Assembly: GCF_030936135.1 (NCBI RefSeq)
Contig: NC_082634.1
Span: 12,501 to 76,500, forward strand
Reading direction: 5' to 3'
Length of the DNA stretch: 64,000 nt
DNA from: Gavia stellata
Lineage: Eukaryota > Chordata > Aves > Gaviiformes > Gaviidae
The position numbers were made by a program, and so were the translations under genes. The notes beneath the pieces are model-generated. The model was not told the origin of the DNA. It saw nothing but the letters and a program-made list of their open reading frames with translations, and did no database searches. Shown piece by piece: positions 1 through 54,460 of the stretch; the first letter of the stretch is position 1, and each line of letters begins with the position of its first letter.

Positions 1-267
1 GGCCCGCCCACTTTGCAATCGAGCCCTCCTTGACACTGGCTCCCTAGTCTGACTCCCCACGCCCTTCTACCACAAGATCTGTGACCATATTCCCATGATC
101 ATGTGCTAAACACCACAGCTCCCTGCTATGACAGACAAATGTCCCGTTCCAGGGGAGTGCTCCCCAGGAACACCATTCCCAGGGGCCTCAAAACCAAAAA
201 AAAGAAAACAAAAGAAACCGCTCTGCCTGCCAAAACCCCGGCCCTGGCCCGACCTCCGCCCAAACGT

Positions 268-285
268 AGGCGACGAACGTCGCCT
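268..285. repeat. perfect inverted repeat AGGCGACG-AA-CGTCGCCT
   Basis: Eight-base arms separated by two A residues are self-complementary. The same palindrome recurs at 673-690 in the next 405-bp unit, so it is part of the repeat unit and not a chance hit. Confidence 0.85.
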
Positions 286-308
286 CGCAGAGCGGCCGGG
301 ACCGGGGG

Positions 309-362
309 AAAAAAACCCAGCTGGGGGAAGAAAAAAGAAATCCCCCAGCCGGGTTTTTTTTT
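309..362. repeat. long hairpin with A-run and T-run flanks (copy 1)
   Basis: CCCAGCTGGGGG at 316-327 pairs with CCCCCAGCCGGG at 342-353 with one mismatch. It is preceded by a run of A and followed by nine T, which extends the stem. The loop is A-rich, 14 nt. Confidence 0.85.
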
Positions 363-713
363 ATTCTATTTCTCTTTTCAAATGTCCAACAGAGAGAACA
401 ATCTCAACTCCGCCTCCAACCTGCAGGGAAAAACACAACAGGTAAAAAACAGTTCAGTATACAAGGCTAAGCACCTTCACAACACACCGCTCATTCAGCT
501 ACCGCCTAAACCGCCCCTCGCTCGCCCATCATCCGCTCCCGCCACCCACCCGCGCCGACGGGCCGGTGCCCGTTTCCCCCACGCTCCCGGGAACGGCGTT
601 CCCGGGGGCCTCCAAAGGAAAACCACCCTGCCTGCCAAAACCCCGGCCCTGGCCCGACCTCCGCCCAAACGTAGGCGACGAACGTCGCCTCGCAGAGCGG
701 CCGGGACCGGGGG

Positions 714-767
714 AAAAAAAACCCAGCTGGGGGAAGAAAAAAAAAATCCCCCAGCTGGGGTTTTTTT
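714..767. repeat. long hairpin with A-run and T-run flanks (copy 2)
   Basis: CCCAGCTGGGGG at 722-733 pairs perfectly with CCCCCAGCTGGG at 748-759. The flanking A-run (714-721) and T-run (761-767) add about seven more pairs across a one-base bulge. The structure looks like a bacterial terminator, but the context is a vertebrate tandem repeat. A degenerate third version is near 1565-1615. Confidence 0.85.
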
Positions 768-1899
768 ATTCTATTTCTCTTTTCAAACGTCCAATAGAGA
801 CAACACTCTCAACTCCGCCTCCAACCTGCGGGGAAAAACACAACAGGTAAAAAACAGTTCAGTATACAAGGCTAAGCACCTTCACAACACACCGCTCATT
901 CAGCTACCGCCTCAACCGCCCCTCGCTCGCCCATCATCCGCTCCCGCCACCCACCCGCGCCGACGGGCCGGCGCCCGTTTCCCCCCACGCTCCCGGGAAC
1001 GGCGATCCCGGGGGCCTCCAAAGGAAAACCACCCTGCCTGCCAAAACCCCGGCCCTGGCCCGACCTCCGCTCAAACAGTAGCGATAAAGGTCACCTTGCA
1101 GAGCACCTAGAAACATGGCGAGGGGGGGTGGTGCAGGGCAGGCACAGGGAAGGAACCCACCAGGAGAAAGGGAAAAAAAAAAACCCAAAAGACAACCAAC
1201 TACACCCACCCTGGCTGGTTTTTCTTTCCCCCCTAAAATGTCTGAAAAAAAAATTTAAAATTGCATTTGTGCATACAACCTGCAAGGGAATATTGAAAAA
1301 ACACCACACCCCAACACAACTATACAAGCCGAAGCACATGCAAAACATGCCTCTCATTGAACTACCACGCAAACAACTCCTCCCTCTCATCTCGTCGATT
1401 CTACCACCCGCCAGGATGAGCCGTCGCTCCGTGTCCGCGCCGCTCCCCAGAGCCTCGATCATCGCCCTGCCCGCAAAAACCCGGGCCTGAGCCCATCCTC
1501 CTTCCAAACACAGGCAACAGACATCACATTGTAGAGCGGCCGGGACCGAGGGAAAACACAACCACCCAGCTGGGGGAGAAAAAAAACTAACCGCAACACA
1601 CCCAGCTAGGGAATTTCTCCCCCCATTTTTACTTTTAAAATAAGTTTTAGCATCTCAACATTAATTACAACCTGCAACAACAGAATTGACGCGTACAACG
1701 TTAGACACGTTCAAAAACCAACGCTCGTTCAACGTGCGCTCGATTCCACCCCTCGCTCTAAACATCTCCGTTTCACCACCCGCCCGCCACCGCGGCGCAT
1801 CGCCCCGGTTCTAAAGCCGTTCCCGGAACCGCCTCGCCGTGCGCCTCAAACATCCGATTCCAATGCGCGGGCGCTCGTCGCCAGAAGTCGAGGGAGACT

Positions 1900-3480
1900 C
1901 CTCGCTACGCGTGCCGCTCCCTCGCGGTTGCTTTTATTTCTACGCTCCGGCAAAACTCGCTCGAGGATTTGCTCCGGGGATCCGAACAGCCCCACGGTGC
2001 CCATGTAATGCGACAGAAGGGACTCTACGGCCCGCTCGCCTGTAGCTACCGGCTATCCCCCAAAACGCCCCATACAACCTCCGCCCAAACGGGCCACGCT
2101 AATCAACGTATCTGCATCCCACATTTGGGCCGCTCCACCCTGAGCGGTATTGCTATGCACACAGACAGAGCTGCTCCACCTCGAACACATGCAAACAAAC
2201 ATGACGTAAGGCTGCGAGAACAGCACACGGGTTTGAGTCAACACCGGACCGAAACGCAGCCTCGCGTTAGGCACGACGATGCCGCGGCCGCTCCGGCGCG
2301 GCCTGCCGTGCTAGAAGGCTGTGGCTCCGGATGGAAGGTAGGCGAGGAGGCTGCAATGACCGCTCAAAACAAAATGCCAGGAAATACTTAAGACTATGGT
2401 GACACAGGGAACAAACCCCTGGAAGAACTTGAAAAAGACACTCGGCAAGAGAAGACCCAATAGCAAAGCCCTACTGAGAGCCGCGAGACAGACTGGTCAG
2501 ACACGCCTACGACGCTCGACCGGACCGGCAGCTTTCCGCTTCTACGTCACGCCGCAAAACACGACACGGTCGATTGGCGACGCGCCTATAACTGGAGACC
2601 GAAACGATGCTGCGGATGGCTACTCCGATCGCGGAATGAAGCGAGTACGCCGGAGCTTCCTCAGACGTGAAAGCCGAGACTCGTCAACGTGTTAGTTAAG
2701 GCACACGTACGAAAACACGCTAGGCATACAACACGACCCTACCCGCTCATCCCGGAGCCATTTGAACGGTGCACGCACCTCGCGACCTTTTGCGCCCGCT
2801 ACCCGCGTGCGGCTCGCTCCCCGCAAACCACCCTCTCGTTACCCTGCCGTTTGGAGATGCGAGGTCCCCCGCTCCCCACCGCTTTGCTTTCACGGTGCTG
2901 CGGGTCACCGTTTATCCTCAGTGGCCATCCTCAATAGCAGCTGCTTCATACAAATGCAAGGTTCCTTTAGTCAGCTAGTGCCCCTCAGTCACCCGCAAGA
3001 ACAACACACAGAGCTGTTTACTACATGCTTCATCCACGAGAGAGCAGCCCGCCAAAGCTCCGCTTGTCTGCTGTACTCTGACTCAAAAAACCACACGCAC
3101 ATTGCGGACAGAGTCCTCTAGCGCTTAACCCCAGAGCATCATAACAACCGAGACACCCCAAAGCGACCGACCGTGCAGAGACCCGTCACGCAGCTCCTTG
3201 GACAAGGGCGTCTCATCCGTTTCCGGAGGCTTGCCACGGGGCACCTGCAATAACAGTAGGATAACCGTTGCCGACTTGCCACCTTAGCTCACGTCACCTC
3301 GCAATCCCGCCGCGATCCGCTCGACTCCCGTTCACGTGCGCAGACACCTCAAAGTCACCTTAACCCTCTACGCCGGCTACACGATGCCGTACATTGCAAC
3401 ACGCTCGCATTGTTCACCACAAAACCCAAGTACAGACACAGGACAGTCTCAAATGGCTGTCCACCCAAGTACAGAGCTGC
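1900..3480. other. unassigned sequence between tandem arrays
   Basis: Moderately GC-rich, CpG-containing sequence. I see no known coding family, no clear repeat period and no transposon remnant. Short open frames occur on both strands, but none has recognisable domains or neighbouring splice signals that would join them. Confidence 0.5.
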
Positions 3481-3489
3481 ACAACACAA

Positions 3490-4130
3490 GACAGTCTCGC
3501 ACGGCACTCTGTACCAGCGCGGAGCGACACAAACGCGCCGCAGAGCCGAGCGCGGAGCGACGAGAACGCGCCGCAGAGTAAGACGGACTCGGGCGGCAGT
3601 CGATACAGGCACAGAGCGACACAAACGCGCTGCAAAACCGAGCACGGAGCGACACAAACGCGCTGCGGAGCAAGACAGTCTCGGGTGGCAGCGGATATGG
3701 GCACAGAGCGAGACAACGCGCCGCAGAGCCGAGCGCGGAGCGACGCGAACGCGCCGCAGAGTAAGACGGACTCGGGCGGCAGTCGATACAGGCACAGAGC
3801 GACACAAACGCGCTGCAAAACCGAGCACGGAGCGACACAAACGCACAGCAAAGCGAGACGGACTCGGGTGGCGGTCGATACGGTCACGGAGCGACACAAA
3901 CGCGCCGCAAAACCGAGTACGGAGCGACGCAAACGCACAGCAAAGCGAGACTGTCTCGGGTGGCGGTCTATACAGGCACGGAGCGATACGATCCACTGCA
4001 GAGCAAGATAGCCTCAGGTGGCAGTCGCTACAAGTTCAGAGCGATGCAATGCACTAGAAAACCAAATACAGAGCAATACAAATGCGCTACAAAACCAAAT
4101 ACAGAGCGCTGCAACACAATACAAAACCGC
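3490..4130. repeat. 36-40-bp minisatellite with a 183-bp higher-order unit
   Basis: The core GAGCGACACAAACGCGC is repeated about 16 times with small changes. Two longer blocks starting GAGCCGAGCGCGGAGCGAC at 3543 and 3726 are almost identical over more than 100 bp, so the array has a 183-bp superunit. Translations in several frames are Arg/Ala/Thr-rich or, on minus, Cys/Arg/Leu-rich, as expected for such a repeat, and are not taken as genes. Confidence 0.9.
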
Positions 4131-7100
4131 AACAACGCACGTGCGAGAAGCACGGCTTTAAGACCTAAGCCTATAGGAACGCAGCGTTGAAATGCCGTAG
4201 GGGACCTCTACAGAAACAGAACTTTCGAGAGCTGGTCCCGATGGCCTCTGGAAACACCCGCGATGCATGACACGCTTTAAGGTCCGATCGCGGGACCGGA
4301 AGCGCGTGACAGGCTCTGCGTCAAAGCGGCGAGACGTTCGAGACCCTCCGGATGCCTACCGAGGCCTGTGCCGAGAGCGGAGAGCCTGTGGGGCGGAACG
4401 TAGAGACCGATGGAAGGCTCCATATAGGAGACAGAACACAGACTACACCGTTGACACCGGAACGCAGACCGGAATGTTCGCATCTTGCGGAACGGACCCG
4501 GGCCCTCTATCTGCCCACAGACTTAACGGAGCCCAAATAACCCTCTCTGCAACCCTGACGTTAGACGGCCCCCTGCTGGCCTCACCCCACCTACCGCTTC
4601 CGCCCCTTGACTTAGCTTTCGGAGGGCAGGGTCCACATTCCATCCTCATTGGGAGCGCATCATCTAACCGGCATGTTCCCGCATACATAGAGTTCCTCTT
4701 CATCACCTGCAAAGACAGAGCGCCGCCAGTCGCTGACACGCCAGCCATCGATTCCAAAGTCGCCTGCTGTAGCCCCAATTGCTTCTGGCACCTAAGATAC
4801 CAAGAGACACAAAGTTATCATTGGGCTTATGAGACATCACCGGCCCCGTGCTCCTCCTCGCTACTACCTAGCTCACCGCAGGTGGTCATCCAATTCCAAA
4901 GGTGGCCTGCACAGCACCTGCAAAACCAAAAGGTAAATACTTAGGTGAGTTGCCATATAATACTTTGACTCCTCATCACCGACCCGGCCAACAACTCCTC
5001 GCCTTCTCAGACTGCTCGTCAGCTGCAGCTTTGTCCCTACGAGGCTGCGTGCGGCACCTGCAAGAACCAAAGCAAAAGGCACCCGCTGAGATACTGCCCA
5101 AAACTGCAGCCTGTCCGCAGTCATTCCTTATCTCCTGCGCTTTACCTTGGCTGCTCGCTGGCCCCGCCTCTGCCGTTTACAGGTTGCCAGGTAGAGGCTT
5201 GGGTACCACCCGTAAGTCATAAACAACACAAGATGCTCATAAACTTCACTAACACAACACCTGAAAAATAACTGCTACTTTGGCCCGCTACTCACGGCTC
5301 ACCTTATCCGAGTCGGCTCCGGAGCCGACATCCTGCTTTGCAGCTTTAAAATTTAAGAAACCCGCAAAACAAAACCTCTGAGCTAGTCACGCAGCCACCG
5401 GTCACATCTTCCCTCCGACACCGTGCGTCGAACCGCCTTCTTATGGCGCTCCGCTCGCGTCTGCTCCGTCGCCTGTTGACACGCCGCTTGTCCTGCTCCA
5501 TCTGAAAAAGTAATATTGAACAAGTCACCCAGATGCCAATCGATGGCTTAAGAATTCTAGAGGTCTCAATTCCATTGAGGAATACCATCTACACTCCAAC
5601 TACAGCCCACCATTAACAAACCACATAAAGACCAAAACCTTTAGGCCCCACACATACAAGCCTTAACGCCTTTGAGATTGTCTGCTTTACTACCGCTGAA
5701 CAGCCCCTCCCATACGGTGCCAATCATCCCCACAAAACGCTACGGAAATGACTGTCCGCACAACCTGCCGATGGCTACTCGATCCGAGACGACTGCACGA
5801 TCGCTGCCTAGACAGTCTAGGCACATCAACATACCATAACCGTAGACTCTTCCTGCTATTCTACCTACCCCTGACACCACGCTCCCGGGCAGAGCAGCTC
5901 AGAGCCGGACACGTGCACGCGCAGGCCGACGCTACTTGGAACGCTACAGACAACATGACTCAAAGATGAGAGAAAATTCTCAGCAAGAATAATAACGCCT
6001 AGAACCGAGGCTCTGTCACGCTAGAAGACCTAAGCGGCCACAACGATGAGGCAAGGCGGCTCTACGGCAGCCCTGGAAAAGAGTCCCACATAATGGCCCC
6101 TAACAAGAAGTAGTCCCTGTCAAAACTGAGATGATGGATGCGCAGGAAGCCCGGTTTCAAGACTTAAGAACATAAGGGTGCAGGGCAGAAGAAGTCACAG
6201 TCCGTGAAAATAGACTGAGAGAGCAGAGCTGCTGACACAGCCCGGAACGATGCCACAAAAAGAGGACCGACGGAAACTTCTGAGGCGCGAGACCGATCCA
6301 CGCTTTAAGCTTATAACGCAAGAAAAGAAGCGCCCGATTGGCTCTGTGGCCGATGAGTACGGGCATTCGAGACCCTAGGGATGGCACCCGAGGCGCATGC
6401 TGCGCTCCTCAAGCGCAAAGAGGACATCGAGACCCGAGGAACATCTAAGACGCAGAAGACGGACCGCGCAAACTACACGTGGACACACAGACGCAGGCTG
6501 GAACTGCCCTGCTGGGTACACGCTAGTCTTGCGCCAAAGAGTAACCCGCTCCCCTTACCTGCCCAAAGGGGACCGTTCCTGGACAGCCCTCTCCTCTACG
6601 CTACCTTTAAAACCCCTCCCTGCAATTCCCAACCTTGTCCCATCCTCCCAGCTCCAGTCCCTCAACTTAGCTGTCGGAGCGCCGGGGGTCTGATTCCATC
6701 CTCAAAGTTACATCGGCTAACTGGAATGTTCCTGCGGTCAACAGGTTCCTCTTCATCACCTGCAATAAAAAAAAATCAAACAAAAACAAAGCAGTGCCAG
6801 CAGTGAGCATCACATCGGCCAATGACAACCTCTTCCACAACACACCCCTCCTCAGATGAGACGTGGCATTCTGCTCACCTGCTCATTCCAGAGTTGGACG
6901 CTGCGGCTGTCGTCATCTGTTTTAAGTAAGATTCCAAGAGACGCAAAATGATCGCTGGGCTTGTGAGGAGTCATCAGCCCCACGCTCCTCCTCACTACCA
7001 CCCCAGCTCTCCCCAAGTGAGCATTCAGTTCCAAAGGCGGCCCACGCAGCACCTGCAAAACTGAAAGGTAAAGACTTAAGCGAGTTGCTGTGTAATACTT

Positions 7101-9740
7101 CGCTCTCGGACACCAATGCAGCCAACCGCCTTACCTTCTCATACTGCTCGTCAGCGTGTGGCTTCACCTTGCAGAGTCTGCATGTGGCACCTGGAAAAAA
7201 ACAAATCAGAAGGCACATGCCGAGATACCTCCCGAAACCTCAGCCTACCCCCAGTAATTCTCATCTCCCGCTCCTTTACCTTGACCGCTCGCCCACCTGG
7301 CCTCCGTCTTTTTGGGCTGCCACACTGAGGCTCGGGTACCACCTGTAGACGCAAACAAGGGATGCTTCTACCTTCACCAACAATAGAACACCTGAAGAAT
7401 AACTGCTACTTCAGCCCACTAGTCATGGCTTACCTTGCCCGAGGCAGCTCGGCTGCCAATATCCCACTGCAATCATCATTTCACACATTCAAAATAATGA
7501 GAGACAGAACCACCACCATACAGCCACCAGGTGCATCTTCCCTCCGACACCACGCACCAACCCACCTTCTTACGGCACACCGCTCGCCTGTTCTGTTGCT
7601 CTTTGGTGCTTATCTTGTCCCTCTGCACGCAAAAAAAAAAATATTGATCAAGTCTCCCAGATGCTAAATGATAGCTGAAGAACTCCAGAAGTCTCAATTC
7701 CATTTAGGAATACCATCTAGACTCCAATTACAGCCTGCCAAAACAAAAAATAGACCAAACCTCAAGCCCCACACATACAAGCCTTAATGCCTTTGAGATT
7801 TAATCTGCTTCCCTACCGCCGAACAGCCCCTCCCACACAGTGCCAATCATCCCCACAAAACGCTACGGAAATGACTGTCCGCACAACCTGCCGATGGCTA
7901 CTCGACCCGAGATGACTGTACAACCCTTGCCTAGACAGTCTAGGCACATCAACATACCATAACCGTAGACTCTTCCTGCTATTCTACCTACCCCTGGCAC
8001 CACACCCCCGGGCAGAGCAGCTCCGAGCCAGACACATACATGCAGAGACCAACGCTGTACAGAACACTACAGACAACACAACTCGAAGATGAGAGGAAAC
8101 CCTCAGCAAGAAGACCGATGCCCAGAACAGAGATGCTGTCGGACTAGATGACCTACAGGGCCGCAACAATGAGGCGAGGAGGCTCTACAGCAGCCCCAGA
8201 AAAGAGTCGAACATAACAGCCCATAATAAGAAGTCACTGTCAAAACTGAGACGATGGATGCGTGAGAAGCCTGGCTTCAAGACCTAAGAGCGTGAAGGTT
8301 GCAGGGCAGAAGTCCCAGTCTGTGAAAATAGATGGCTAGAGAGCTGAGCTGCTGACGCAGCCTGAAACGATGCCGCAAGAGAGGATTGATGAGAAATTTC
8401 AAGACACCAGACCGATCCACGCTTTAAGCTTATCACACAAGAAAAGAAGCGCCCGATTCGCTCTGTGCCGACGAATACTGGCATTCGAGACCCTAGGGAT
8501 GGCACCCGAGGCGCATGCTGCGCTCCTCGAGTGCAAAGAACAACGAGAACATTGAGACCCCAGGAAGGTCTAAGACACAGAAGACAGACCGCACAAACTA
8601 CACACCGACACACAGACGCAGGCTGGAACTGCCCTGCCCGCGCTAGTCTTGCGCCAAAGAGTAACCCCGCTCCCTTTATGCGGGCAGCCCTCTCCCCTAC
8701 GCTAAATTTAATGCGCCTCCCTACAATTCCCAGCCTTATCCCCTCCTCCCAGGCCCTCCCCTTCAACTTAACTTTCAAAAGAGCCAGGGGTTTGATTCCA
8801 TCCTTGACAAGAAAAAAAATTAATATTGGATAACTGGGATGCTCCTGCTGCAGTCACCAGGTTCTTCACCACCTGCAAGAAAAACAAGCACCAGCAGCAA
8901 GCATCCTGACGGTTGAGACCAATGTCTTCAACATCACCCTTCTCCTCAAAAGCGATATGGTCTTCTGCTCACCTGCTCCGCATGGATTCCAGAGTCTGAT
9001 GCTGTGGTCACGATTGCTTCTGGCACCCAATATACCAAGAGACAGAAAATTACTGTTGTGCTTGTGAGATAGTCACCAGCCCCTGCTCCTCCTCGCTACT
9101 CCCCAGCTCACCTCAAAAGCTCATCCAATTCCACAGGTGGCCCGCAGGGCGCCAGCAAAACCAAAAGAGAAACGCTTTGCTGAATTGTTGCAGCATACTT
9201 TGCTCCGAGACACCAACCCGGCCGACAGCCGCCTCACCTTCTCGGACTGCTTGTCGGCATGCTGCTTCACCCCTCCGAGCCCATGTACAGCACCTGAAAG
9301 AAAAAAGAGAGCAAAAGACACATGCTAAGATCCTGCTGAAACTGCAGCCTGCCCACAGCTATTCCCATCTCCCACTCCTTTACCTTAGGCTGCCTCCACC
9401 ATTTACAGGCCACCACATTCAGACCTGGCTGCCACCTGAAGGACACAAACAAGGGATGCTTCTAACTTCACCAACAATACAACTCCTTAAAAATAACTGC
9501 TGCTTCAGCCCGCTAGTCACAGCTCACCTTGCCCAAGGCAGCTCCAGAGCCAGTATCCTGCTTTGCTCATTGCTTCCACCTTCAAATTGAAAAACAAACC
9601 AAAACCTATAAGGTAGTCATGTAGCCACCAGTCACATCTTCCTTCTGACACCACACACAGACCCACCTTCTTATGGCAACTGCTCGCCTCCTGTCGCCCT
9701 TTGGCCCATGGCTCATCCCTCTGCACCTGAAAAAGCAATA

Positions 9741-10480
9741 TCAAGCAACTCACCCAGATGCAGAGTGATAGCTGAACACCAGGGGTCTTGTTTCCTTTCA
9801 GGTATACCATCTGGAGTCCAACTACACCCTACCATGAAAAAAAATCTGGTCATCCCCTGTGTCTGCATAACACTATGGAAATGACTCTCCTCGCCTGCTG
9901 CATATATGGCTACTTGCTCTGAAATAGACTGTACACCCTTTGCCTACAAAGCCTTGGCCTGTCAAGATATTAACTAGAGAATCTTACTGGTATTTCCCTG
10001 CTGAGCCTATCACTGCTACGCCTCCAGGCAGAGCAGCTCCAACCCAGGCAAAAACCACGCACGGACCAACACTGCACACAAATGAGACAAAGGACACGAC
10101 CCAGAGGCATAAGAACGCTCCCTGTAAGAAGAACGACTCCTGGACCAGAGATGCCATCGGGCGAGAAGACCTAGGGGGTTGCGAGGAAGAATCGACGGCA
10201 GCTCCAGAAAAGCCGAATGCCGTGCCCCTCGACAAGAAGATACGGCCGCAACTGGGACGAAGCGTGCGCAAGAAGCCCTGCGTAAAGGCCTCAGAATGTA
10301 GGGATGCAGGGAAGAAGTCTGAGAAAAGGGATCGGTGAAAACAGGCCGCTCAAGGTCAGAGCTGCTGACTCAGCCTGGAACGATGCCACAAGAAGAGGAC
10401 TGACCGGAAACTTCAAGACGCAAGACCTATCCACGCTTTAAGCTTGTTATGCAAGGAAAGCAGCGCCCAGTTGGCATTAT
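9741..10480. repeat. near-identical 0.74-kb segment (copy A)
   Basis: This stretch and 12968-13707 match with a constant offset of 3227 bp and only scattered differences. That is much more similar than other units of the same array. Both contain an identical 132-codon plus-strand open frame (from 9940 and 13167). Identity of the frame is explained by recent duplication, so it is not called as a gene. Confidence 0.85.
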
Positions 10481-12967
10481 GCCAACGCATACAGGCATTC
10501 GAGACTGTGCTCCTTGAGCGCAAAGTCCACACAGAGACTTCAGGAAGGTCTAAGACACAGAAGAGACTGCACAAACTACACAACATGACACCGACACAGG
10601 CTGGAACTGCCCTGCCCACGCTAGTCTTGTGCTGAGAAGTAACCCGCTCGCTTTACCTGGACAGCCCTCTCACCTACACTACCTTGAAAACGCCTCGCCG
10701 CAAGTCCCAACCTTGTCTGTCTCCTCCCAGCTGTGGTCCTTCCACTTATCTTACAAAGGGCCACAGGTCTGAAGCCATCCTCAAGAACACACCCACACAA
10801 GCCACATTAGCTAACTGGAACATTTCTGCAGTCGCCAGGTTCCTCTTCATCACCTGCAAAAAAAGAAAACACACACAAACAAGTGCCAGCAGTAAGCATC
10901 ACATCAGTCAACACTGACCTCTTGCACAACACCCTCCCCCTCAAGAGCAAGGTGGCCTTCTGCTCACCCGCGACGTGCCGCCTCCAAAGTCAGACGCTGT
11001 GGTCGTCATCGCACACAAGCCTTAACACCTTTGAGATTCAATCTGCTTCACTACTGCTGAACAGCCCCTCCCACATGGCTCTAATTATCACCATCAAACA
11101 TTATGGAAATGACCACCTACACAACCTGCCAACAGCTCCTTCATCTGAGACAACTGTACAACTGTTGCCTAAAGAGTCTAGGCATATCAACATATTAACC
11201 ATGGGCTCTTACTGCTATTCCACCACCCCTGACTCCGCACACCCGGGCAGAGCAGCTCCAAGCCAAACACACACACAGAGATCAACACCCCTCAAAACAC
11301 TACAGACAATGCAACTCGAAAGACAAGAGAAAAGCTCTCGGCAAGAGCAACGATGCCCAGACTGGAGATGCTGTCAGGCAAGAACACCTGCAGGGCCGCA
11401 ACGGTGAGGCGAGGAGGCTCTATGGCAGTCTCAGAAAAGAGTGCAACATAATGGCCCGTAAGAAGTTACAGTCAAAACTGAGATGATGGATGCACAAGAA
11501 GCCTGGCTTTGAGACCAAAGAACATAAGGATGCAGAGAATCGTCCCAGTCCATGACTATAGAAGGCTAAGAGCAGAGCTGCTGACACAGCCTGGAACGAT
11601 GCTGCAAGAGAACCGACCGGAAACTTCAAGAGAAGCGAGACCGATCCAGGCTTTAAGCTTGTAATGCAAGAGAAGAAGCACCCGATAGGTACTATGTCAA
11701 TGAATACAAGCATTCGAGACGCTAGGGTTGGTGCCCAAAGCACATGCTCTGCTTCTTGAGTGCAAAGAACAATGAGGACATTAGGACCTGAGGAAGCTCC
11801 AAGACAGAAGACAGACTACACAAACTACACCACACCGACACAGGCTGGAACTGCCCTGCCCAGCACACATAATGTGTTACTGATAAGCAACCCACTCCCT
11901 TTACCTGGACAGCCCTCTCCCCTACACTACCTTTTAATCCCACTCCCCGCCATTCCCAACCTTTTCTGCCTCCTCCCAGCCCCAGTCCTTCAACTTCGCT
12001 TTCAGAGGGCCAGGGGTTTGAATCTACCCTCGACAAACAAGCCACATTGGCTAACTGGGGCATTCCTGCAGTTGCCAGGTTCCTCTTCATCACCTGCAAA
12101 AAAACTCAAGTGCCATCAGTAAGCATCACGTCAGTCAACACTGACCTCTTGCACAAGACCCTCCCCCTCAAGAGCAAGGCGGTCTTCTGCTCACCTGCAC
12201 CATGCTGTCTCCAAAGTCAGGCGCTGTGGCTGTCATTGCTTCTGGCACCTAAGATACCAAGACACAGAAAATTACTGTTGCGCTTGAGATAATCACCAGC
12301 CCCGCGCTCCTCCTCGCTACTACCCAGCTCACCTCAAAAGCTCATCCAATTCCACAGGCGGCCCACACGGCACCTGCAAGACCGAAGAGAAATGCTTCAC
12401 GGACTGGCCACAGGATACTTTGCTCTTAGACAGCAACCCAGACGACAACCACCTCACCTTCACGGACCTCTTGTCAGCACGCGGCTTTGTCCCTCCGAGG
12501 CAATGTGCAGCACCTGCCAAAACAACAGCAAAAAGGCACATGCTGAGGTACTGCCCAAAACTGCAGCCCGCCTGCAGTGATTCCCATCTCCCACTCCTTT
12601 ACCTCGGCTGCTCATCCACCCTGCCTCTGCTCTTTACAGGTTGCTACACTGAGGCTCAGTTATCACCTGTAAAACAAACAACAAGGAGTACCTTCACCGA
12701 GAATACAACACCTGAAAAATAACTGCTACTTGAGCCCACTAGTCATGGCTCACCTTGCCTGAGTCACCTCCAGTGCCAATAGCCTGCTTCGCTCATTGCT
12801 TCGCACCTTCAGAATAAAAACCCAAAACCTATAAGGTAGTCATATAGCCATCAGTCACATCTTCCCTCTGACACCACGCAACAAACCACCTTCTTGCACC
12901 GACCGCTCACGCCTCCTCTTTTGCCCCTAGGTGCCTGGCTCATCCCTCTGCATATAAAAAAGCGATA

Positions 12968-13707
12968 TTGAACAACTCACCCAGATGCAGAGTGATAGCT
13001 GAACACCAGGGGTCTTGTTTCCTTTCAGGTATACCATCTAGAGTCAAAACTACACCCTACCATGAAAAAAATCTGGTCATCCCCTGTGTCTGCATAACAC
13101 TATGGAAATGACTCTCCTCGCCTGCTGCATATATGGCTACTTGCTCCAAAATGGACTGTACACCCTTTGCCTACAAAGCCTTGGCCTGTTAAGATATTAA
13201 CTAGAGAATCTTACTGGTATTTCCCTGCTGAGCCTATCACTGCTACGCCTCCAGGCAGAGCAGCTCCAACCCAGGCAAAAGCCACGCACAGACCAACACT
13301 GCACACAAATGAGACAAAGGACACGACCCAGAGGCATAAGAACGCTCCCTGTAAGAAGAACGACTCCTGGACCAGAGATGCCATCGGGCGAGAAGACCTA
13401 GGGGGTTGCGAGGAAGAATCGACGGCAGCTCCAGAAAAGCCGAATGCCGTGCCCCTCGACAAGAAGATACGGCCGCAACTGGGACGAAGCGTGCGCAAGA
13501 AGCCCTGCGTAAAGGCCTCAGAATGTAGGGATGCAGGGAAGAAGTCTGAGAAAAGGGATCGGTGAAAACAGGCCGCTCAAGATCAGAGCCGCTGACTCAG
13601 CCTGGAACGATGCCACAAAAGACGACTGACCGGAAACTTCAAGACGCAAGACCTATCCACACTTTAAGCTTGTTATGCAAGGAAAGAAGCGCCCAGTTGG
13701 CACTATG
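12968..13707. repeat. near-identical 0.74-kb segment (copy B)
   Basis: Partner of 9741-10480 at +3227 bp. It indicates a recent unequal exchange or conversion inside the array, or an assembly effect. Confidence 0.85.
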
Positions 13708-14910
13708 CCAACATGTACAGGCATTCAAGACCCTAGGGATGGCACCCAGGGGACATACCGTGCTCCTTGAGCACAAAAAGGAGATGGACACTGAAGAAGG
13801 TCTAAGACACAGAAGACAGACCGCACAAAGTACACAACACCACACCAACACAGGCTGGAACTGCCCTGCCCACGCTAGTCTTGTGCTGAAAAGTAACCCG
13901 CTCCCTTTACCTGCCCAAAGGTGACTCTTCCTGGGCAGCCCTCTCCCCTACACTAACTTAAATACCCTCCCTGCAATTCCCAACCTTGTCCCCCTGCCCC
14001 AGAGCCCCCTCCCCAGCCCTGGTCCTTCCACTTATCTTTCAGAGGGCCAGGGGTCTGAATCCATCCTACGCAAAAACCACATCGGCTAACTGGGATATTC
14101 CTGCAGTTGCCAGATTCCTCTTCATCATCTTCACAAAAACAGTGCCAGCAGTAAGCATCACATCAGTCGACACTAACCTCTTGCACAACACCCTCCTCCT
14201 CGAAAGCGATATGGCCTTCCGCTCACCCACTCTGCGCCGGTTCCAAAGTCGGACGCTGTGGCCGTCATTGCTTCTGGCGCCTAAGATACCAAGAGACAGC
14301 AAACTATTGTTGCGCTTGTGAGACATTACCAGCCCCGTGCTCCTCCTCGCTACTACCCCAGCTCACCTCAAATCCAATTCCAAATGCAGCCTGAATGGCT
14401 CCTGCAAAACCAAAGAGAAACACCTGAGCTGCCACATGATTATCTGCTCTTAGACACAGACCCAGCTGAGAACCGTCTCACCTTCTCAGACCACTCATCA
14501 GCCTGCGGCTTCACCCCTCCCAGCCTGCTGCAGCACCCGAAGAAACCAAAGCAAGAGGCATATATGAGATACTGCCCGAAACCACAGCCTTCCAATCTTT
14601 CATTACTTGCCCGAAACCACAGCCTTCCAATCTTTCATTACTTGACCTTAGCGGCTCACCTGCCAAACACAAACAAGGGATGCTTCTAACCTCACTACAA
14701 TACAACACCTGAAAATTAACTGCTACTTGAGCCCACTAGTCACATCTCACCTTGCCTGAGTCACCTCCAGCACCAATAGCCTGCTTCGCTCATTGCTTCC
14801 ACCTGCAAAACAAAAAAACCCAAACGTGCAAGCTACTTGGTCCTGATGCTTATAATGTATGAGGGGCCTGCCACAAGCTGTAAAGGTTTGGGAACAAATT
14901 AGTACTCTGC

Positions 14911-16180
14911 AGGCAACCAAGTAATTAGCTGCCCTGTACTCTGTAAGACACTATGAATCATATCCCAGCTACTTACTTAAGAAATGTTAAAAGTCCATAT
15001 ACAGATGCATACAAAATGCTCACCCTAACCCCTGCTAGAAAATCTCACCATTGGTCCTATTAGCAGAGAGTATATCATTAACATACACAACATACAGCAC
15101 AACTGGTGAAAAAATCCCAAGGTTCCACCATCAATAAAGAATTCCAGGAAAATGCAACACACATAGAATAAGAAAAACCCTACACACAATCAAACCATCT
15201 TGCTGCCCTTGAACACTCAATACAAAATTACTGACCTGAAAAAAACCCCACTGCATAGAGATGTACTTTCTACTACATATGCTGCTGAACCTTGACTATT
15301 CCTGAAGCTCTTACCTCAGACAGACACCTCCACATCTCTAAATATCAAAACACATCTGCCCAAATAGCTTAGACAGCTCAAAAGCAGCAATTGACTGAAG
15401 GAACGGCAGAGCTCTGACACCAGAGAAACCCAGGAGCAGAATGAGCTCCCTGAGGAGAGGCTGTGGCTCATATACCCCGGGCCTCACCCACTGCCTTTCC
15501 CACAACCACCTGGGGAAGGGGAGGGGTGAATCACCTGAAGGCATAAAGGCGGCCGGAGGAGCAGCAGAGAGTTTGCTCACCTGCCTTAAGTTTACAGTAT
15601 GTGAAGTGCTGAAGAGAGAAAATGACCCGTACTGGAAATGACGATACCTGCTCTTTTGCTGCAACTACATCTATTGCATCAGCAACGTGACCAAGTAGGG
15701 AATGAAACTTAATTTTTCTGAGGCATAGATAGAAAAAGATAGATGTTGTACTAAGCTATGTAAGAAAGTAGGTCATTAAATGCAATAATTACATTATTAT
15801 CAAAAATTATGTGGTTTAGTTTCCTATTAAAAAAACCCCAAATCCTCTGGGGTTACACTTCATTTCCAGCACACTACCTAACTTCTACTGGAACTACATT
15901 CTGGGTAGGACGGAATGACAAAGTAGAATTAGAACCCGTAAGAATCCCTTCTCAAAAACATCTCTGGTTGCAAAGTAAATTATTGACTGTAAATTGTTGA
16001 TGATTCAGAGTCCGACTGACTCCCTTAAGAGAATTAGATGAGTCCCGAAGGACAGAAAACACCAAAAAAACATTGAAATACAAGAAATGTATCAAGCTGT
16101 ATGAAGCAGCCTAGTTAGCACCTAATTAACTAGAACAAAAATAAATTGCAAAGCACAACAAAAAACACCACGGGAGATGT
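14911..16180. other. AT-richer unique spacer between the two large arrays
   Basis: This is the least GC-rich part of the left third. It shows no repeat period and no recognisable coding family. The composition change at both ends is sharp, so it may be an insertion or the original sequence between two arrays. Confidence 0.5.
15467..15474 (-). promoter_or_regulatory. weak TATA-like candidate upstream of the array
   Basis: On the minus strand TATATGAG follows a GC-rich stretch with a CACCCCTCCCC box about 50 bp upstream. It points toward the exon-like array. On the plus strand GCATAAAGG at 15540-15548 is an alternative TATA-like element. Either could be chance; no transcript evidence is available in the sequence. 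Confidence 0.18.
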
Positions 16181-16229
16181 GTCGATAAAAATAGAGGAAG
16201 GCTATCGCCTCCTCTGAAAAACTCAAGAG

Positions 16230-18340
16230 GGGATTTGAGCTGATGATAGACATCTTTAGGGTGCCAGATACCACACAGAAACATACTATAAGACGGGAAA
16301 ACAAAAGGACGGCTCTGGAGCACAAAGATGGCTTCGGAAAAGGTTCTGACAGAACAAGAGGCATCGTCACGGGGATTAGAGAAGTCCCGAAAGGACCAGA
16401 GAGACCAAAGAAGCCTTGGGGATGCAACGAGCTCTAAAGGGAATTGAACAAAGTACAGATGTCCTCAGGGGACCGGGGACCGAATGGAGGCGCACTGAAC
16501 GGATGAGAGGACAGAAAGACCCCCCCGAGGTAACACGTGTGGACTCAGGAAGCGTTCTGAGGGGAAAAGAGGGGTGCAAAGCGCCCTCCTGAGCTAAAAC
16601 AGGGCTGTACGGTATAGGGGATGTCTCGCAAGAGCTCGGCAAAGGGAGCGGCGGAGTCCCGAGGGGGCCTGAGAGACCAAAGAAGCCTCAGAGATAACAA
16701 TGAGGAACTCTGAAGGGGATTTCAACAAAGTACAGATGTCGTCAGGGGGCCGGGGGCTGAACGAAGGCATCCTAAACGGCAAAGAGTAAGATAAGAGCGC
16801 TCTGAAGTGCGCACAAAAATAAAATTGAAAGGGAGCTGAAGTGCTACAAGAGTGCTGTGGAGTACAAGAAAGGACTCGGAAGACAGAGACAGTGGAAGAA
16901 TTACAAGGGGACACGGTGAGAAAAGAAGACTTGGAGATGCAGCGAGGGCCTTGGAGTTTCAGGAGGGCATTGGGGCAAACTACAGATGACTGAGAGAGGA
17001 ACCAAATGGAGACACCCTCGATGGCAGAGAGAAAGACAAAGGAGCGCTGCGTAGCAAAGAAAGAAGGGAGGCGCTGATGGAGCAAGAGAGCTAGAAAGGG
17101 CGATAAAGTGCCACGAGGTGCCGTGGAGATCGAGGAAGGTCTCGTTAGGCATCGTGACTGTGAGGAGAGGGGTGTCGAGGGGCGCTAACGGACAAGACAA
17201 GGCTTGGGGATGACAAGGAGGAACTAGGGCGATCATCTGAGCGGAGTACAGATGGTCTCGGGTGGTAAGGGACTGAAAAAGGAAATCCTAGATAGCGTAG
17301 AGGAACAAATGAGTGTTCTGTGGCTCAAAGATGACCCCATGTAAAGTGCTAAAAAGATGGATGTGGAGCACAAGGAAGGTCTCTGGAGGCATCGTGACTG
17401 GGAGAAGAAACGTCCCGAGGGAGACAGAAAAAGGATTGGGGAATCAACAATTAAATCCAGAGGGGCTCTCAGCCGAGTAAACATGTCATCAGAGGGCCAG
17501 GGAGCAAGTAGAGGTGTGGCTAGAGGGAAGAGAGGAGAGAATGACCGGGCTGGGTCACAGATACGGACTCGGGAAGTCTTCTGAGGGAATGAGAAGGATG
17601 CGAGGTCCACCACAAAGCTAAAAGTGTGCTAAGGGCAACCTCGAAGACATCGTGATGCCATTAGAGGGGTCCCGACTGGGCCAAAGGTGCCAAAGAAGGC
17701 TCAGGGACGCGAGGAGGAAGTCTGGAGGGGATCTGAACAGATTACAGATGTCCTCGGGAGGCTGGGGACCAAATGGAGGCACCCTAGATGGCGGAGAGGG
17801 TAAGAGCGCTCTGCGGCACAAACCAACCCGAGGACGGCTTTCTGAGGGAACGAGAGAGGACCAAAGTCTGAGACAGAGCTAAAACGGGGCTGCGGTACAC
17901 AAAGAACGTCTCGGGAGGCACGGTGACTAGGAGCGGAGGGGTCATGAAAGACTCGAGGCGTAAGAGAGATTGAAAAGGAGGTAACGTGCTACCAAAAATG
18001 CTGTGGAGCACAAGAAAAGTCTCAGGAGGCATCCTACATGGCATAGAGAAGAAATAGAATGTTCTGTTTTGGGAAGGGAGATCTTAGGAGAGGTGCGATT
18101 GCGACAAAATGAGTCCAAAGAGGGCTTACAGAGCTAAAAGTCTGCTGCAGAGAACATCTAAGACCTCAGGAGGCATTGTGACAGTAGCAGAGGGGTTCCA
18201 AGAGGGACAGACAAAACAAGGCTCGAGGATGTGATGATGTCGTTCAGAGGGGATCTGAACAGACTACAGATGCCCTCAGGGGACTAGGGACTGAGCAGAG
18301 GTATCCTAGCTAGCATAGATGATGACATGAGTGTTCTGGA
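16230..18340. repeat. ~260-bp tandem array, about 8 units
   Basis: The landmark ACAGATGTCCTCAGG or a close variant lies near 16454, 16732, 16981, 17246, 17480, 17742 and 18264, giving steps of 278, 249, 265, 234, 262 and twice about 261 bp. Other landmarks (GAGCACAAGAAAGTCTC, GGCATCGTGACTG) keep the same register. Units differ by many substitutions and small indels, so the array is not recent. On the minus strand several units share a PPEDIC-type peptide phrase, but frames shift between units and no gene is called. Confidence 0.85.
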
Positions 18341-18459
18341 GATGAAAAATGGCATCAGAAAAGGTTCTCGGGGAGCAATGTGGAATTATTGCTGGAGGTG
18401 ACTTAGAAGTTAAATCTATATTTGCATTTTATAGGGAAGGTACAGCACTGAAGCAACTT

Positions 18460-18785
18460 TCATTCCTTTACCTTGGCCGCTCACCTGCCCTGCTTCTGCT
18501 GTTTATAAGGTGCCATGTCGAAGCTTGGGTACCACCTGCCAAACACAAACAAGGGATGCTTCTAACCTCACTACAATACAACACCTGAAAATTAACTGCT
18601 ACTTGAGCCCACTAGTCACAGCTCACCTTGCCTGAGTCACCTCCAGCACCAATAGCCTGCTTCGCTCATTGCTTCCACCTGCAAAACAAAAAAACCCAAA
18701 CCTGCAAGCTACTTGGTCCTGATGCTTATAATGTATGAGGGGCCTGCCACAAGCTGTAAAGGTTTAGGGACAAATTAGTACTCTG
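18460..18785 (-). repeat. displaced copy of the 14.6-14.9 kb array segment
   Basis: From about 18517 to 18784 the sequence matches 14641-14908 at an offset of 3876 bp with very few differences. It includes two exon-like blocks starting (minus strand) at 18678 and 18535, equivalent to 14802 and 14659. The match stops abruptly at GTACTCTG on both sides, after which the two loci differ completely. Confidence 0.85.
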
Positions 18786-18949
18786 TGGTCCAGGACCCCC
18801 AGGGAAGTTTTGGGGGTCCCTAAGGTCATGCAGTGCCTGGAAAGGTGGATAATACACATGTGCCACCCCCGCCGGTTGCTAAATCCAGCCCCCACCCTGC
18901 GCCGAGTGGCACCAGGTGTTTGGTTGGGGAGGGGTTGTCAGTGGGGCAC

Positions 18950-25030: not shown

Positions 25031-25215
25031 GTCCACCTGGGCTGCAATCCCTTGTGCAGGGGAGCGGTTGCTGATGTCAGGAACAGAAGGTGTCGTCATG
25101 GCAATGCTGGAACCTGCAGCACTGTTGGGGGCCAGGTTGAGGTAGTTGGGTGTCCCAAGCCCATCTTGGGTGCTGAGTGGGGGATCCCAAGCCCCTGGCA
25201 AGGAGCTGACTCACC

Positions 25216-27182
25216 ATGGGGACGCTGGTGGTGGGTGCCGAGTGCTACGACATAGTGGCCACGGTGGGGAAGGGAACCTTTGGGGAGGTGACCCGGGGCT
25301 GGCGGAGGAGCACAGGGGAGATGGTGGCCATCAAGATCCTGAAGAACGAAGGCCATCATGGCCAGGTGGCGAAGAATGAGCTGAGGCTGCTGCAGGCCTT
25401 GCGGGAGATGGACACAGAGGAGTCACACGTCGTCCGTTTCCTCGAGTCCTTCGGTGATGGTGCCTGTACCTACCTGGTCTTTGAGCTGCTGGAGCAAAAT
25501 CTCTTTGACTTCCAAAAGAAGAACAACTTCATGCCATTGCCTGTCCGGCACATCCGTACCATCACAGCGCAGGTGTTGGCAGCGTTGGTCAAGCTGAAGG
25601 AGCTCTCCATCATCCACGCCGACCTCAAGCCAGAGAACATCATGCTGGTGGACCATGCACGCTATCCTTTCCGTGTCAAGCTCATCGACTTTGGCTCGGC
25701 CAGCATCTTTACCGAGGTCCGCCACATCAAGGAACCCTACATCCAATCCCGCTTCTACCGGGCACCAGAGATCTTGTTGGGGTTGCCCTTCTGCGAAAAG
25801 GTGGACGTCTGGTCTTTGGGTTGCGTGATGGCCGAGCTTCACTTGGGTTGGCCTCTCTACCCTGGCGTCAACGAGTATGACCAGGTCCGCTACATCTGCT
25901 CCACCTTGGGGCTACCACGGGGTGAGTTGCTCTGCGCCGCCCAGAAGACGTGGTCCTTCTTCCAACGGGTGCCACATCCCACCAGTTCCTGGCAGCTCAA
26001 ACCACCAGGTGAGGAGATGGCGAAGCCAACAGAGAGGAGGAAGTATGTCTTCTCCTCACTGGATCAGTTGGCGGCAGTGAACATCCGCCCAGTGTTTTAT
26101 CCCAGCCGGGAGGCACTGGCCGAGCGCTGTGACCTGCATGGGATGGTAGAGCTGGTCAAGAGGATGCTCACCTGGGACTCGCACGAGAGGATCGTGCCCA
26201 GCGCCGCCCTCAAGCATCCCTTCATCTCCTTGCAGCAGGTGAAGACCAGCTTCGAGGCCACCCGGTACTACCAGCTCTGCCAAGAGGACTTGAGGGCATC
26301 CCGTAAGGATGCCGGCACACTTGAGATCTTCCCTGGCATGGAGGAAGGTGCCTTCAACCCTGCCAGCCATTGCAGCATCCAGAAGGCCATCACCCAGATG
26401 GATGGGCTCAGTCTGGCTGAGCCGGTTGGGGACACCGGTGACAACAGAGAGCAGGACATCTGCCAAGCCCCCATCCCCACCCACTACGGCACCTGGCACC
26501 ACCAGCATCACCAGCGTTCCAAGACGGAGCCCACTGCCAGTAACTTGATCGTGCTGGGGTCCCCCCGCAGACGGGAGCAGCACGGCCACCGTGATGGTGG
26601 CATGGTCTTTGGTGGCATCATGGAGCAGAACCTGCCTGGAAGACCATACACCTCACCCCACACCAAGGTATGGACACAGGGTGGGGGGCTCACACAGAGA
26701 CTGTGGGCTCCTGGACAATGGGGCTCTGGGACACTGGGTGCTTGGGGTCCCTTGGGTGCTTTGTGTCTCCCAGGTGCTTCAGGTCCCTGGATGCTCGGGG
26801 TTCCTGCTGCCCCGTGTTCCCTGGTGCCCCACATCATGGATGCTCGGGGTCCCTGGTTCCTGGTGCTCCCACGTCATGGGTGCTTGGGGGTCCCTGGTGC
26901 TCCATGTCCCTTGGTGCCCCACGTCATGAGTGCTTGGAGTCCCTGGGCATTCAGGGTCCCTGGGTGCCCCAGGTCCCCACCAAGGCGGGGGGGACTGCTT
27001 ACCCCATTCTCATGCTTCTCCCCCCTCCCCCGCAGGGAGCTCCGGTGATGCGGCGCAACCCCAAGCCCCCACATCCCATCCCCGTCCCCAAGAACAGGCT
27101 CCAGGGGCCAGGCTGGGATCCCCGCGTTGTACCCGGCACGCTCCTCCCGGCACAGAGCCGGCAACACCCACAGCACCGCTGA
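25216..27182 (+). CDS. HIPK4: homeodomain-interacting protein kinase 4 (HIPK4)
   Basis: This is a DYRK-family Ser/Thr kinase with testis-biased roles in mammals. Coding exons are 25216-26667 (484 codons, ends at a GT donor in phase 0) and 27036-27182, giving 532 aa; human is about 616 aa. The kinase domain covers roughly residues 11-345: glycine loop GKGTFGEV at 18-25, catalytic Lys40 in VAIKILK, HADLKPEN with Asp136, DFG at 158-160, and the activation-loop Tyr175 in YIQSRFYRAPE. The kinase part is very close to mammalian HIPK4, while the C-terminal tail after about residue 350 is diverged and shorter. The whole kinase domain is in one uninterrupted exon. The start is the first in-frame ATG and gives an N terminus aligned with the human protein. 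PLD3 is convergent downstream. Confidence 0.94.
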
Positions 27183-54153: not shown

Positions 54154-54239
54154 CAGGGCAGCATGGCACTGCCGACGTTGCCGACACCGCGGGCTGCCGG
54201 CGCCCGTGCCCAGGACTACCGGGGGAGAGAAAGGAGTGT

Positions 54240-54460
54240 TAATGGGGATGATGAGGGTGGGGTGGTGACAGTGGAGACAGCATGGGGCTGGCAAGGCCAG
54301 TATGGGGCTGGTGGGGACAGTATGGGGTTGGCAGGGACACTATGGGGCTCTGGGGACACTATGGGGCTGGCGGGGCAAGCACGGGGCTGGGGGGGTTAAC
54401 GGGGCCATTACTGGGCCATTCCCAGCACCGTTACTGGGCTGTACTGGGGTCACTGGGGCG
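54240..54460. repeat. short minisatellite 5' of FBXO46 coding exon
   Basis: About eight copies of GGCTGG(C/T)GGGGACA(C/G)TATGGGG-type units of 20-25 bp lie in the FBXO46 5' intron. Confidence 0.8.

What the first reader, a model, noticed from the sequence alone, without database searches (positions are those of the whole stretch)
4265..14910. Higher-order array whose ~140-150-bp monomers look like minus-strand mini-exons
Blocks of 41-66 nt recur every 140-150 bp (9726, 9579, 9435, 9293, ~9152, 8872 in one unit; 12806, 12666, 12513, 12373, 12093 in another). Most are preceded by a T-rich tract with CAG and followed by GTGAG or GTAAA. Fourteen or so monomers build a 2.0-2.1-kb unit repeated about six times. 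The block lengths do not preserve a frame, so this is not an ordinary repeated protein gene. It may be a satellite that is spliced when transcribed, a multi-exon noncoding RNA, or a decayed exon-repeat gene. I do not know a described avian family that matches.
Basis: partly seen in the sequence, partly recalled or inferred. Interest (0 to 1): 0.8.

Follow-up and report, generated by a model that had tools for sequence, protein, structure and literature searches.

The report
Spliced RNA gene at bird telomeres
The repeat is one copy of a gene-like block found at the ends of many chromosomes of this probably avian genome, with a conserved promoter and a chain of tiny exons pointing at the telomere, which suggests a little-known family of spliced non-coding RNAs made at chromosome ends.

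Summary
The observation largely holds; the reading changes. Six minus-strand mini-exons (41-64 nt in the consensus, 3' splice sites 126-154 bp apart) fill one half of a ~2.1-kb unit repeated about six times. They form a 6-exon chain, against a mean of 0.23 and a maximum of 2 in 500 shuffles. The other half has no such chain and the monomers are mostly not homologous, so "14 monomers of 145 bp" fails.

The array is not a local satellite. The window begins 12.5 kb from a contig end that carries (CCCTAA)n. The same block recurs in this genome: promoter region 40 scored hits of 94 candidates, telomere-proximal block 40 of 48. On contigs over 400 kb, 15 of 16 promoter hits point at the nearest end.

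Upstream lies a promoter: TATA box with 7 of 8 columns invariant in 25 copies, initiator 32 nt on in 23 of 25, exon 1 ending in GTRAG in 24 of 25. Array donors are better kept than other GTs across 57 units (0.949 v 0.690, p=0.0004); acceptors are not. No reading frame was found.

Best reading: a telomere-directed, spliced, non-coding subtelomeric RNA gene family. Transcription is inferred, not shown.

The parts
15512..15531 (-). C-rich upstream promoter element (CACCC/Sp-like; label recalled), the best-conserved 20-bp window of the 781-bp promoter region
   Evidence: 0.992 conservation, rank 1 of 762 windows over 25 copies
15542..15549 (+). CATAAAGG, TATA-like on the opposite strand; possible divergent promoter
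   Evidence: invariant in 25 copies, as are 14 other 8-bp windows; function inferred
15467..15474 (-). TATA box TATATGAG
   Evidence: 7 of 8 columns invariant in 25 copies, the eighth 24 of 25; rank 24 of 774 windows
15315..15442 (-). predicted exon 1 (128 nt): initiator TCATTCT with A at 15442, donor TGAG|GTAAGA after 15315
   Evidence: TATA-to-initiator distance 32 nt in 23 of 25 copies; donor columns invariant except +1 in one copy and A/G at +3
14037..14880 (-). unit U6 (partial), nearest the promoter; exons B 14802-14751, E 14401-14367, others damaged
11999..14036 (-). unit U5
   Evidence: alignment
12754..12806 (-). U5 mini-exon B
12603..12666 (-). U5 mini-exon C
12458..12513 (-). U5 mini-exon D
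12333..12373 (-). U5 mini-exon E
12195..12248 (-). U5 mini-exon F
10734..11998 (-). unit U4, shortened by an internal deletion; most of its mini-exon half is missing
8756..10733 (-). unit U3
9667..9726 (-). U3 mini-exon A
9528..9579 (-). U3 mini-exon B
9384..9435 (-). U3 mini-exon C
9238..9293 (-). U3 mini-exon D
9112..9152 (-). U3 mini-exon E; the acceptor AG is TG in 6 of 8 aligned ends, this copy among them
8973..9026 (-). U3 mini-exon F; acceptor is GG in this copy, AG in the other 7 of 8 aligned ends
6639..8755 (-). unit U2; mini-exons A 7622-7566, B donor 7434, C 7342-7280, D 7190-7135, E 7052-7012, F donor 6879
4586..6638 (-). unit U1; mini-exons A 5501-5437, B donor 5303, C 5209-5146, D 5057-5003, E 4917-4877, F acceptor 4791
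3481..4140 (-). GC-rich minisatellite between array and telomere-proximal block
1105..3480 (-). telomere-proximal block, one copy per contig end among the listed hits
   Evidence: 1701-3400 finds 48 candidates, 40 scored, 80-100% identity
215..1104 (-). 405-bp terminal-exon-like repeats with T-rich tract and AATAAA
   Evidence: AATAAA in 18 of 21 copies from 8 contigs, but the acceptor motif YAGGTTG in only 11 of 21
16200..18400 (+). purine-rich repeat upstream of the promoter; seen at the C1, C30 and C16 ends too
18533..18785 (-). 253-bp duplicate (98.4%) of 14657-14909, carrying exon B and the start of C

Best explanation
A subtelomeric, Pol II-type, spliced non-coding RNA gene, found about once per chromosome end where it occurs and aimed at the telomere. 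A TATA/initiator promoter starts transcription at about 15442 on the minus strand. Exon 1 (128 nt) is spliced to a chain of mini-exons in tandem 2.1-kb units, and the RNA probably ends in the AATAAA-bearing 405-bp repeats before the telomere, or runs on toward it. The promoter and donor sites are kept while exon bodies drift, so the act of transcription and splicing, or the chromatin and R-loop state it sets next to the telomere, is a likelier function than any one exon sequence. Shown: the anatomy, its recurrence at contig ends, its orientation, and conservation of TATA, initiator, exon-1 donor and array donors. Inferred: transcription, splicing, 3' end, function.
For: Recurrence: mini-exon half 40 scored of 372 candidates, promoter 40 of 94, telomere-proximal block 40 of 48. 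Same order of parts at eight ends: C41, C1, C30, C16 and C38 were read through the promoter; C24 and C27 have promoter hits further in; C26 was not read that far and has no promoter hit among the 40 listed. Telomere repeats were found in 4 of 9 fetched end stretches (C41, C16, C26, C24) and at the C14 start outside its block. Orientation: 15 of 16 promoter hits on contigs over 400 kb point to the nearest end. Promoter conservation. Donors 0.949 intact v 0.690 for 77 control GTs, permutation p=0.0004. Exon-1 donor varies only between GTAAG and GTGAG in 24 of 25 copies. 19 of 57 units have all 12 splice dinucleotides intact. Chain v shuffles. GC skew favours G on the minus strand in 26 of 31 500-bp windows up to 15500 and reverses beyond the promoter. 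Not coding: minimum stops 3 v 2.38 shuffled; 15 of 18 exon length changes not 3n; no codon periodicity in the terminal block, 42/54/51 of 150.
Against: No RNA evidence exists here. Acceptors are not better kept than other AGs (0.83 v 0.79, p=0.29). Comparing the same unit across ends, donor excess is weaker (0.935 v 0.881, p=0.053) and acceptors show none (0.956 v 0.937, p=0.31; invariant 0.67 v 0.76 of controls), after leaving out three damaged exons and the sites whose majority is not GT or AG (1 donor, 3 acceptors of 21 each). Exons change faster than introns (0.696 v 0.755; 0.763 v 0.786 with CpG columns masked). No spliced retrocopy among 40 scored of 246 candidates. The exon-1 donor window is not exceptional by mean conservation (rank 244 of 772), nor TATA-to-initiator as a whole (rank 81 of 745). 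The five window units keep 44 of 56 splice dinucleotides and none keeps all, so this copy may be poorer than others. AT skew does not reverse at the promoter and recent changes show no clear strand bias. Three fetched contig ends (C1, C30, C27) show no TTAGGG run in their last 10 kb: the contigs probably stop short.
Confidence: 0.65

Rival explanations
1. Passive subtelomeric duplicon: the block spread by exchange between chromosome ends; promoter and splice signals are relics of an ancestral gene that is no longer transcribed.
For: Whole block shared in the same order; same-class units are 87-97% alike between the window and other ends but 69-86% within the C41 array; acceptors and exons show no constraint.
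Against: TATA, initiator spacing and exon-1 donor near-invariance at 89% mean promoter identity; donor excess p=0.0004.
Confidence: 0.22
2. Decayed array of a former protein-coding gene with repeated small exons.
For: Exons are GC- and purine-rich, T-poor (T 0.14 v 0.33 in introns); some exons stay open in one frame in several units.
Against: No frame chain, stops not fewer than shuffled, non-3n length changes, no Pfam match, no PDB match for one frame. The T contrast weakens once splice-signal stretches are left out (rank 179 of 899).
Confidence: 0.15
3. Long piRNA precursor locus with a divergent promoter, as in bird testis.
For: Opposite TATA-like element invariant; chicken piRNA loci are enriched for tandem duplications (PMC9925758, passages read).
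Against: No MYB-motif excess in 14911-15600 (0 v 0.3 and 1 v 0.8 expected); conserved donors are not expected of piRNA precursors (inference). Small RNA not testable here.
Confidence: 0.1
4. snoRNA or other small-RNA host gene, with introns as the product.
For: Introns better conserved than exons.
Against: Rfam: 0 matches at gathering scores in the 64 kb; 11 matches up to E 5 in 1-18800, all below gathering score. Consensus introns of 85-92 nt are short for a hosted snoRNA (recalled).
Confidence: 0.03

Closest known systems
TERRA (telomeric repeat-containing RNA) and its subtelomeric promoters
   Same: Promoter in the subtelomere, aimed at the telomere, many chromosome ends, non-coding.
   Different: Here a TATA/initiator promoter, 17-38 kb from the contig end in 13 of 15 end-pointing large-contig hits (others 4 and 132 kb), a tandem mini-exon array, and AATAAA repeats before the telomere. 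A class of human TERRA promoters is CpG islands in repeats (PMC6600276, start of abstract in a search listing). UUAGGG in the RNA is untested.
CenTe_5k, a 5-kb conserved sequence on the short arms of 19 acrocentric chicken micro- and dot chromosomes
   Same: A sequence shared by many bird chromosome ends, lying with telomere repeats and centromere satellite (PMC9974502, passages read). In this genome the block is also joined to a 190-bp satellite on C345.
   Different: 5 kb against a block of at least 18 kb; the passages say nothing of exons, promoter or RNA. Its sequence is not held here, so relatedness is untested: it may prove to be a relative.
PO41 subtelomeric tandem-repeat RNA of chicken and quail
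   Same: Avian, subtelomeric, tandem, non-coding; foci associated with Pol II (PMC4301066, abstract and passages read).
   Different: PO41 is a 41-bp repeat transcribed from both strands; this is a 2.1-kb exon-bearing unit with splice signals on one strand and its own promoter.
Chicken pachytene piRNA loci
   Same: Fast-evolving, prone to tandem duplication (PMC9925758, passages).
   Different: No small-RNA evidence here; splice donors conserved.
Subtelomeric duplicon gene families (human WASH, DDX11L; recalled)
   Same: Whole gene-like blocks copied among chromosome ends.
   Different: No coding frame found; internal tandem exon array.

Membership tests
TERRA | starts in the subtelomere and is aimed at the telomere | tested here: inconclusive
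   Predicted promoter meets it: 15 of 16 on contigs over 400 kb. Transcription itself is not testable.
TERRA | RNA contains UUAGGG repeats | not testable with these tools
   No RNA data; AATAAA in 18 of 21 terminal repeats argues for an earlier end.
TERRA | CpG-island repeat promoter (one human class) | tested here: not met
   Promoter has TATA and initiator in sequence of 40-44% GC. GC-rich 41-bp and 72-bp arrays lie nearer the telomere on C24.
Higher-order satellite of 140-150-bp monomers | monomers homologous to one another | tested here: not met
   1 of 21 monomer pairs clearly alike; no clear autocorrelation peak.
Protein-coding exon-repeat gene | open frame through joined exons, 3n length changes | tested here: not met
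Spliced multi-exon non-coding RNA gene | promoter, first exon with donor, ordered acceptor/donor chain on one strand | tested here: met
   Sequence signals only:
Spliced multi-exon non-coding RNA gene | spliced transcripts observed | not testable with these tools
   no RNA; retrocopy search negative
CenTe_5k of chicken | sequence similarity to the chicken 5-kb element | not testable with these tools
   sequence not held; only passages seen
PO41 avian subtelomeric repeat RNA | 41-bp PO41 repeat unit | not tested
   A 41-bp repeat lies beside the C24 telomere; it was not compared with PO41.
piRNA precursor locus | piRNA-sized small RNAs | not testable with these tools
   no small-RNA data
snoRNA host gene | snoRNA in introns | tested here: not met
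   no Rfam match at gathering score

The most novel reading that the evidence does not exclude
Many chromosome ends of this bird carry a dedicated promoter that fires a spliced non-coding RNA toward the telomere; its splicing keeps transcription of the subtelomere under control and feeds or limits telomeric RNA (TERRA) and R-loops, making it a telomere-regulating gene family with about one member per end.
Probability: 0.28. Interest if true: 0.92.

Novelty: new variant of a known kind. Interest (0 to 1): 0.75.

Why it matters
From what promoters bird telomeres are transcribed is, as far as I could see, little known. If this family is expressed, it gives a defined promoter, start site and splice junctions at many chromosome ends, so telomere-directed transcription in birds could be measured end by end. 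It also shows a tandem repeat in which the promoter and splice donors, rather than the product sequence, appear to be what is kept.

Tried and rejected
Base-level autocorrelation for 145 bp: no clear peak. Monomer homology: only D-E. Protein reading: not supported. Faster exon change as positive selection: largely explained by CpG content. Known RNA families: none at gathering score. Substitution strand bias as a sign of transcription: no clear asymmetry (A>G 0.048 v T>C 0.044). piRNA promoter motif: not enriched. Exact patterns from the unit in viral contigs and genome contigs: 0 matches. A bacterial promoter scan of 14900-15700 is not informative for this DNA. Spliced retrocopy: none among 40 scored of 246 candidates. 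A 150-152-aa open stretch in the terminal block of three of eight ends: no codon periodicity.

Literature: nine searches. None of the papers listed was seen to describe this family, but most lists were cut (8 to 20 shown of up to 558), only three papers were opened (passages of PMC9925758, PMC4301066, PMC9974502), and most subscription papers are not held. The splice-site tables (used) and the TATA and initiator consensus were recalled. In one search exon 1 was entered as 15447-15316 instead of 15442-15315. The TATA and donor were what led me to use 14920-15700 as a query; I did not write that prediction in the notebook before the comparison. Locus orientation was wrongly handled for minus-strand loci and put right.
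Full report
What was checked. The window's first 15 kb hold a six-unit tandem array (U1 4586-6638, U2 6639-8755, U3 8756-10733, U4 10734-11998 with a large deletion, U5 11999-14036, U6 14037-14880 partial). Pairwise identity of U1-U6 is 69-86%. In the 2094-nt consensus the acceptors are 147, 145, 153, 141, 126 and 154 nt apart. A chain search finds all six exons (62, 53, 64, 56, 41, 54 nt) in the half-unit; 500 dinucleotide shuffles give a mean of 0.23 and a maximum of 2. The other half scores 1 against 0.61 and the plus strand 0. Scores come from splice-site tables I recalled.

What it is not. The monomers are not repeats of one another (1 of 21 pairs clearly alike), and base autocorrelation shows no clear 145-bp peak. 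Joined consensus exons have as many stops as shuffled sequence, copies differ by non-3n lengths (15 non-3n v 3 3n-changes and 117 unchanged in 135 comparisons), and consensus exons match nothing in Pfam (three frames) or the PDB (one frame). Rfam has no match at gathering score in the 64 kb.

Where it is. The genome holding the window could be searched. The window is 12.5 kb from the start of contig C41, which carries (CCCTAA)n. The mini-exon half gives 40 scored hits of 372 candidates, the promoter region 40 of 94, and the telomere-proximal block 40 of 48, with identities of 76-100%, 85-100% and 80-100%. Of 31 promoter hits with known contig length, 24 point to the nearest contig end. On contigs over 400 kb (my cut) it is 15 of 16, the exception being an interstitial copy on C3; on smaller contigs it is 9 of 15, where the nearest end means little. 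Nine hits lie on contigs whose length I did not have. C89 carries two promoter hits, and small contigs may be haplotype copies, so hits are not a count of distinct ends. Nine end stretches were fetched: four show telomere repeats (C41, C16, C26, C24), three show none in their last 10 kb (C1, C30, C27), two could not be read. A fifth telomere, at the C14 start, lies outside that end's block. At eight ends the order of parts is the same: promoter, units, minisatellite, telomere-proximal block, 405-bp repeats. C41, C1, C30, C16 and C38 were read through the promoter; C24, C27 and C26 were not, and of these C24 and C27 have promoter hits further in. On C24 a 41-bp and a 72-bp GC-rich tandem array and then TTAGGG follow. 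Units of one class are 87-97% alike between the window and other ends (seven other ends, five for U5), more than units within the window, so the block spread as a whole.

The promoter. A TATA-like box and the donor at 15315 led me to use 14920-15700 as a query. Twenty-five copies were compared (20 fetched, four in other fetched loci, and the window); mean pairwise identity is 0.891. TATATGAG has 7 of 8 invariant columns and ranks 24 of 774 windows; the C-rich element ranks 1 of 762; an opposite-strand CATAAAGG is invariant, as are 14 other 8-bp windows. The initiator lies 32 nt after the TATA start in 23 of 25; alone it ranks 84 of 775. The exon-1 donor keeps GT in 24 of 25 and those differ only as GTAAG or GTGAG, although as a 10-bp window it ranks only 244 of 772.

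Selection on splicing. Across 57 half-units from 20 contigs (matches under 700 bp dropped), donors are intact in 0.885-1.0 of copies, mean 0.949, against 0.690 for 77 other GTs (p=0.0004). Acceptors are at 0.83 against 0.79 for 87 other AGs (p=0.29). Nineteen of 57 units have all twelve sites; the five window units have 44 of 56 and none has all. These copies are related, so p is approximate. Comparing the same unit over ends, after leaving out three damaged exons (U1 B, U1 F, U2 B) and the sites without a GT or AG majority (1 of 21 donors, 3 of 21 acceptors), donors are at 0.935 v 0.881 (p=0.053) and acceptors at 0.956 v 0.937 (p=0.31). In the window alone donors are 25 of 29 and acceptors 26 of 35, against 276 of 412 GTs and 362 of 467 AGs. 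Exon bodies change faster than introns, largely a CpG effect.

How it probably works. Transcription would start near 15442 on the minus strand, run toward the telomere through units whose mini-exons are joined, and end at AATAAA in the 405-bp repeats (18 of 21 copies; the acceptor motif there is intact in only 11 of 21). G exceeds C on the minus strand in 26 of 31 windows up to 15500, and the sign reverses beyond the promoter, though AT skew does not; recent substitutions show no clear strand bias. No transcript has been seen, and no spliced retrocopy was found among 40 scored of 246 candidates.

Known kinds. It looks most like a subtelomeric, telomere-directed non-coding RNA gene, but cannot be filed as TERRA: UUAGGG content is untested and the human CpG-island promoter type is not met. 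It differs from PO41 RNA (PMC4301066, passages) in unit, strandness and promoter. Chicken has a 5-kb sequence, CenTe_5k, on 19 acrocentric short arms (PMC9974502, passages); it may be a relative, which could not be tested. Nine literature searches, mostly with cut lists, showed no description of this family; that is not proof that none is in print.

Noticed in passing
L061 (C345:19700-28400): The promoter-U6-U5 block (82% to window 16840-12793) is joined to 22 copies of a 190-bp satellite; exon C recurs every 8.64 kb on C345, and C416, C358 and C162 show spacings of 8.63, 6.74 and 9.4-9.6 kb.
   Followed up: partly
C24 end, L027-L028: Between the block and TTAGGG lie a 41-bp array (11.8 copies) and a 72-bp array (18.2 copies) rich in CCGGAAGTG, then degenerate telomere repeats: a possible separate telomere-proximal promoter region.
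   Followed up: no
14657-14909 and 18533-18785: 253-bp direct duplicate at 98.4% on either side of the promoter and purine repeat.
   Followed up: partly
C3:773123 and C3:948074-956041: Interstitial copies of promoter and array about 0.8-0.95 Mb from a 105-Mb contig start, pointing away from that end: an old end, a fusion or an assembly join.
   Followed up: no
20900-54339: PRX-like gene (recalled, no Pfam match for the frame tried), HIPK-family kinase at 25210-27045, DUF5577 at 35530-36048, F-box protein at 52312-54339 minus: order resembles human 19q13.2 (recalled).
   Followed up: partly
308-361 and 713-771: Inverted repeat in the 405-bp repeats (CCCAGCTGGGGG ... CCCCCAGC(C/T)GGG), seen by eye.
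   Followed up: no
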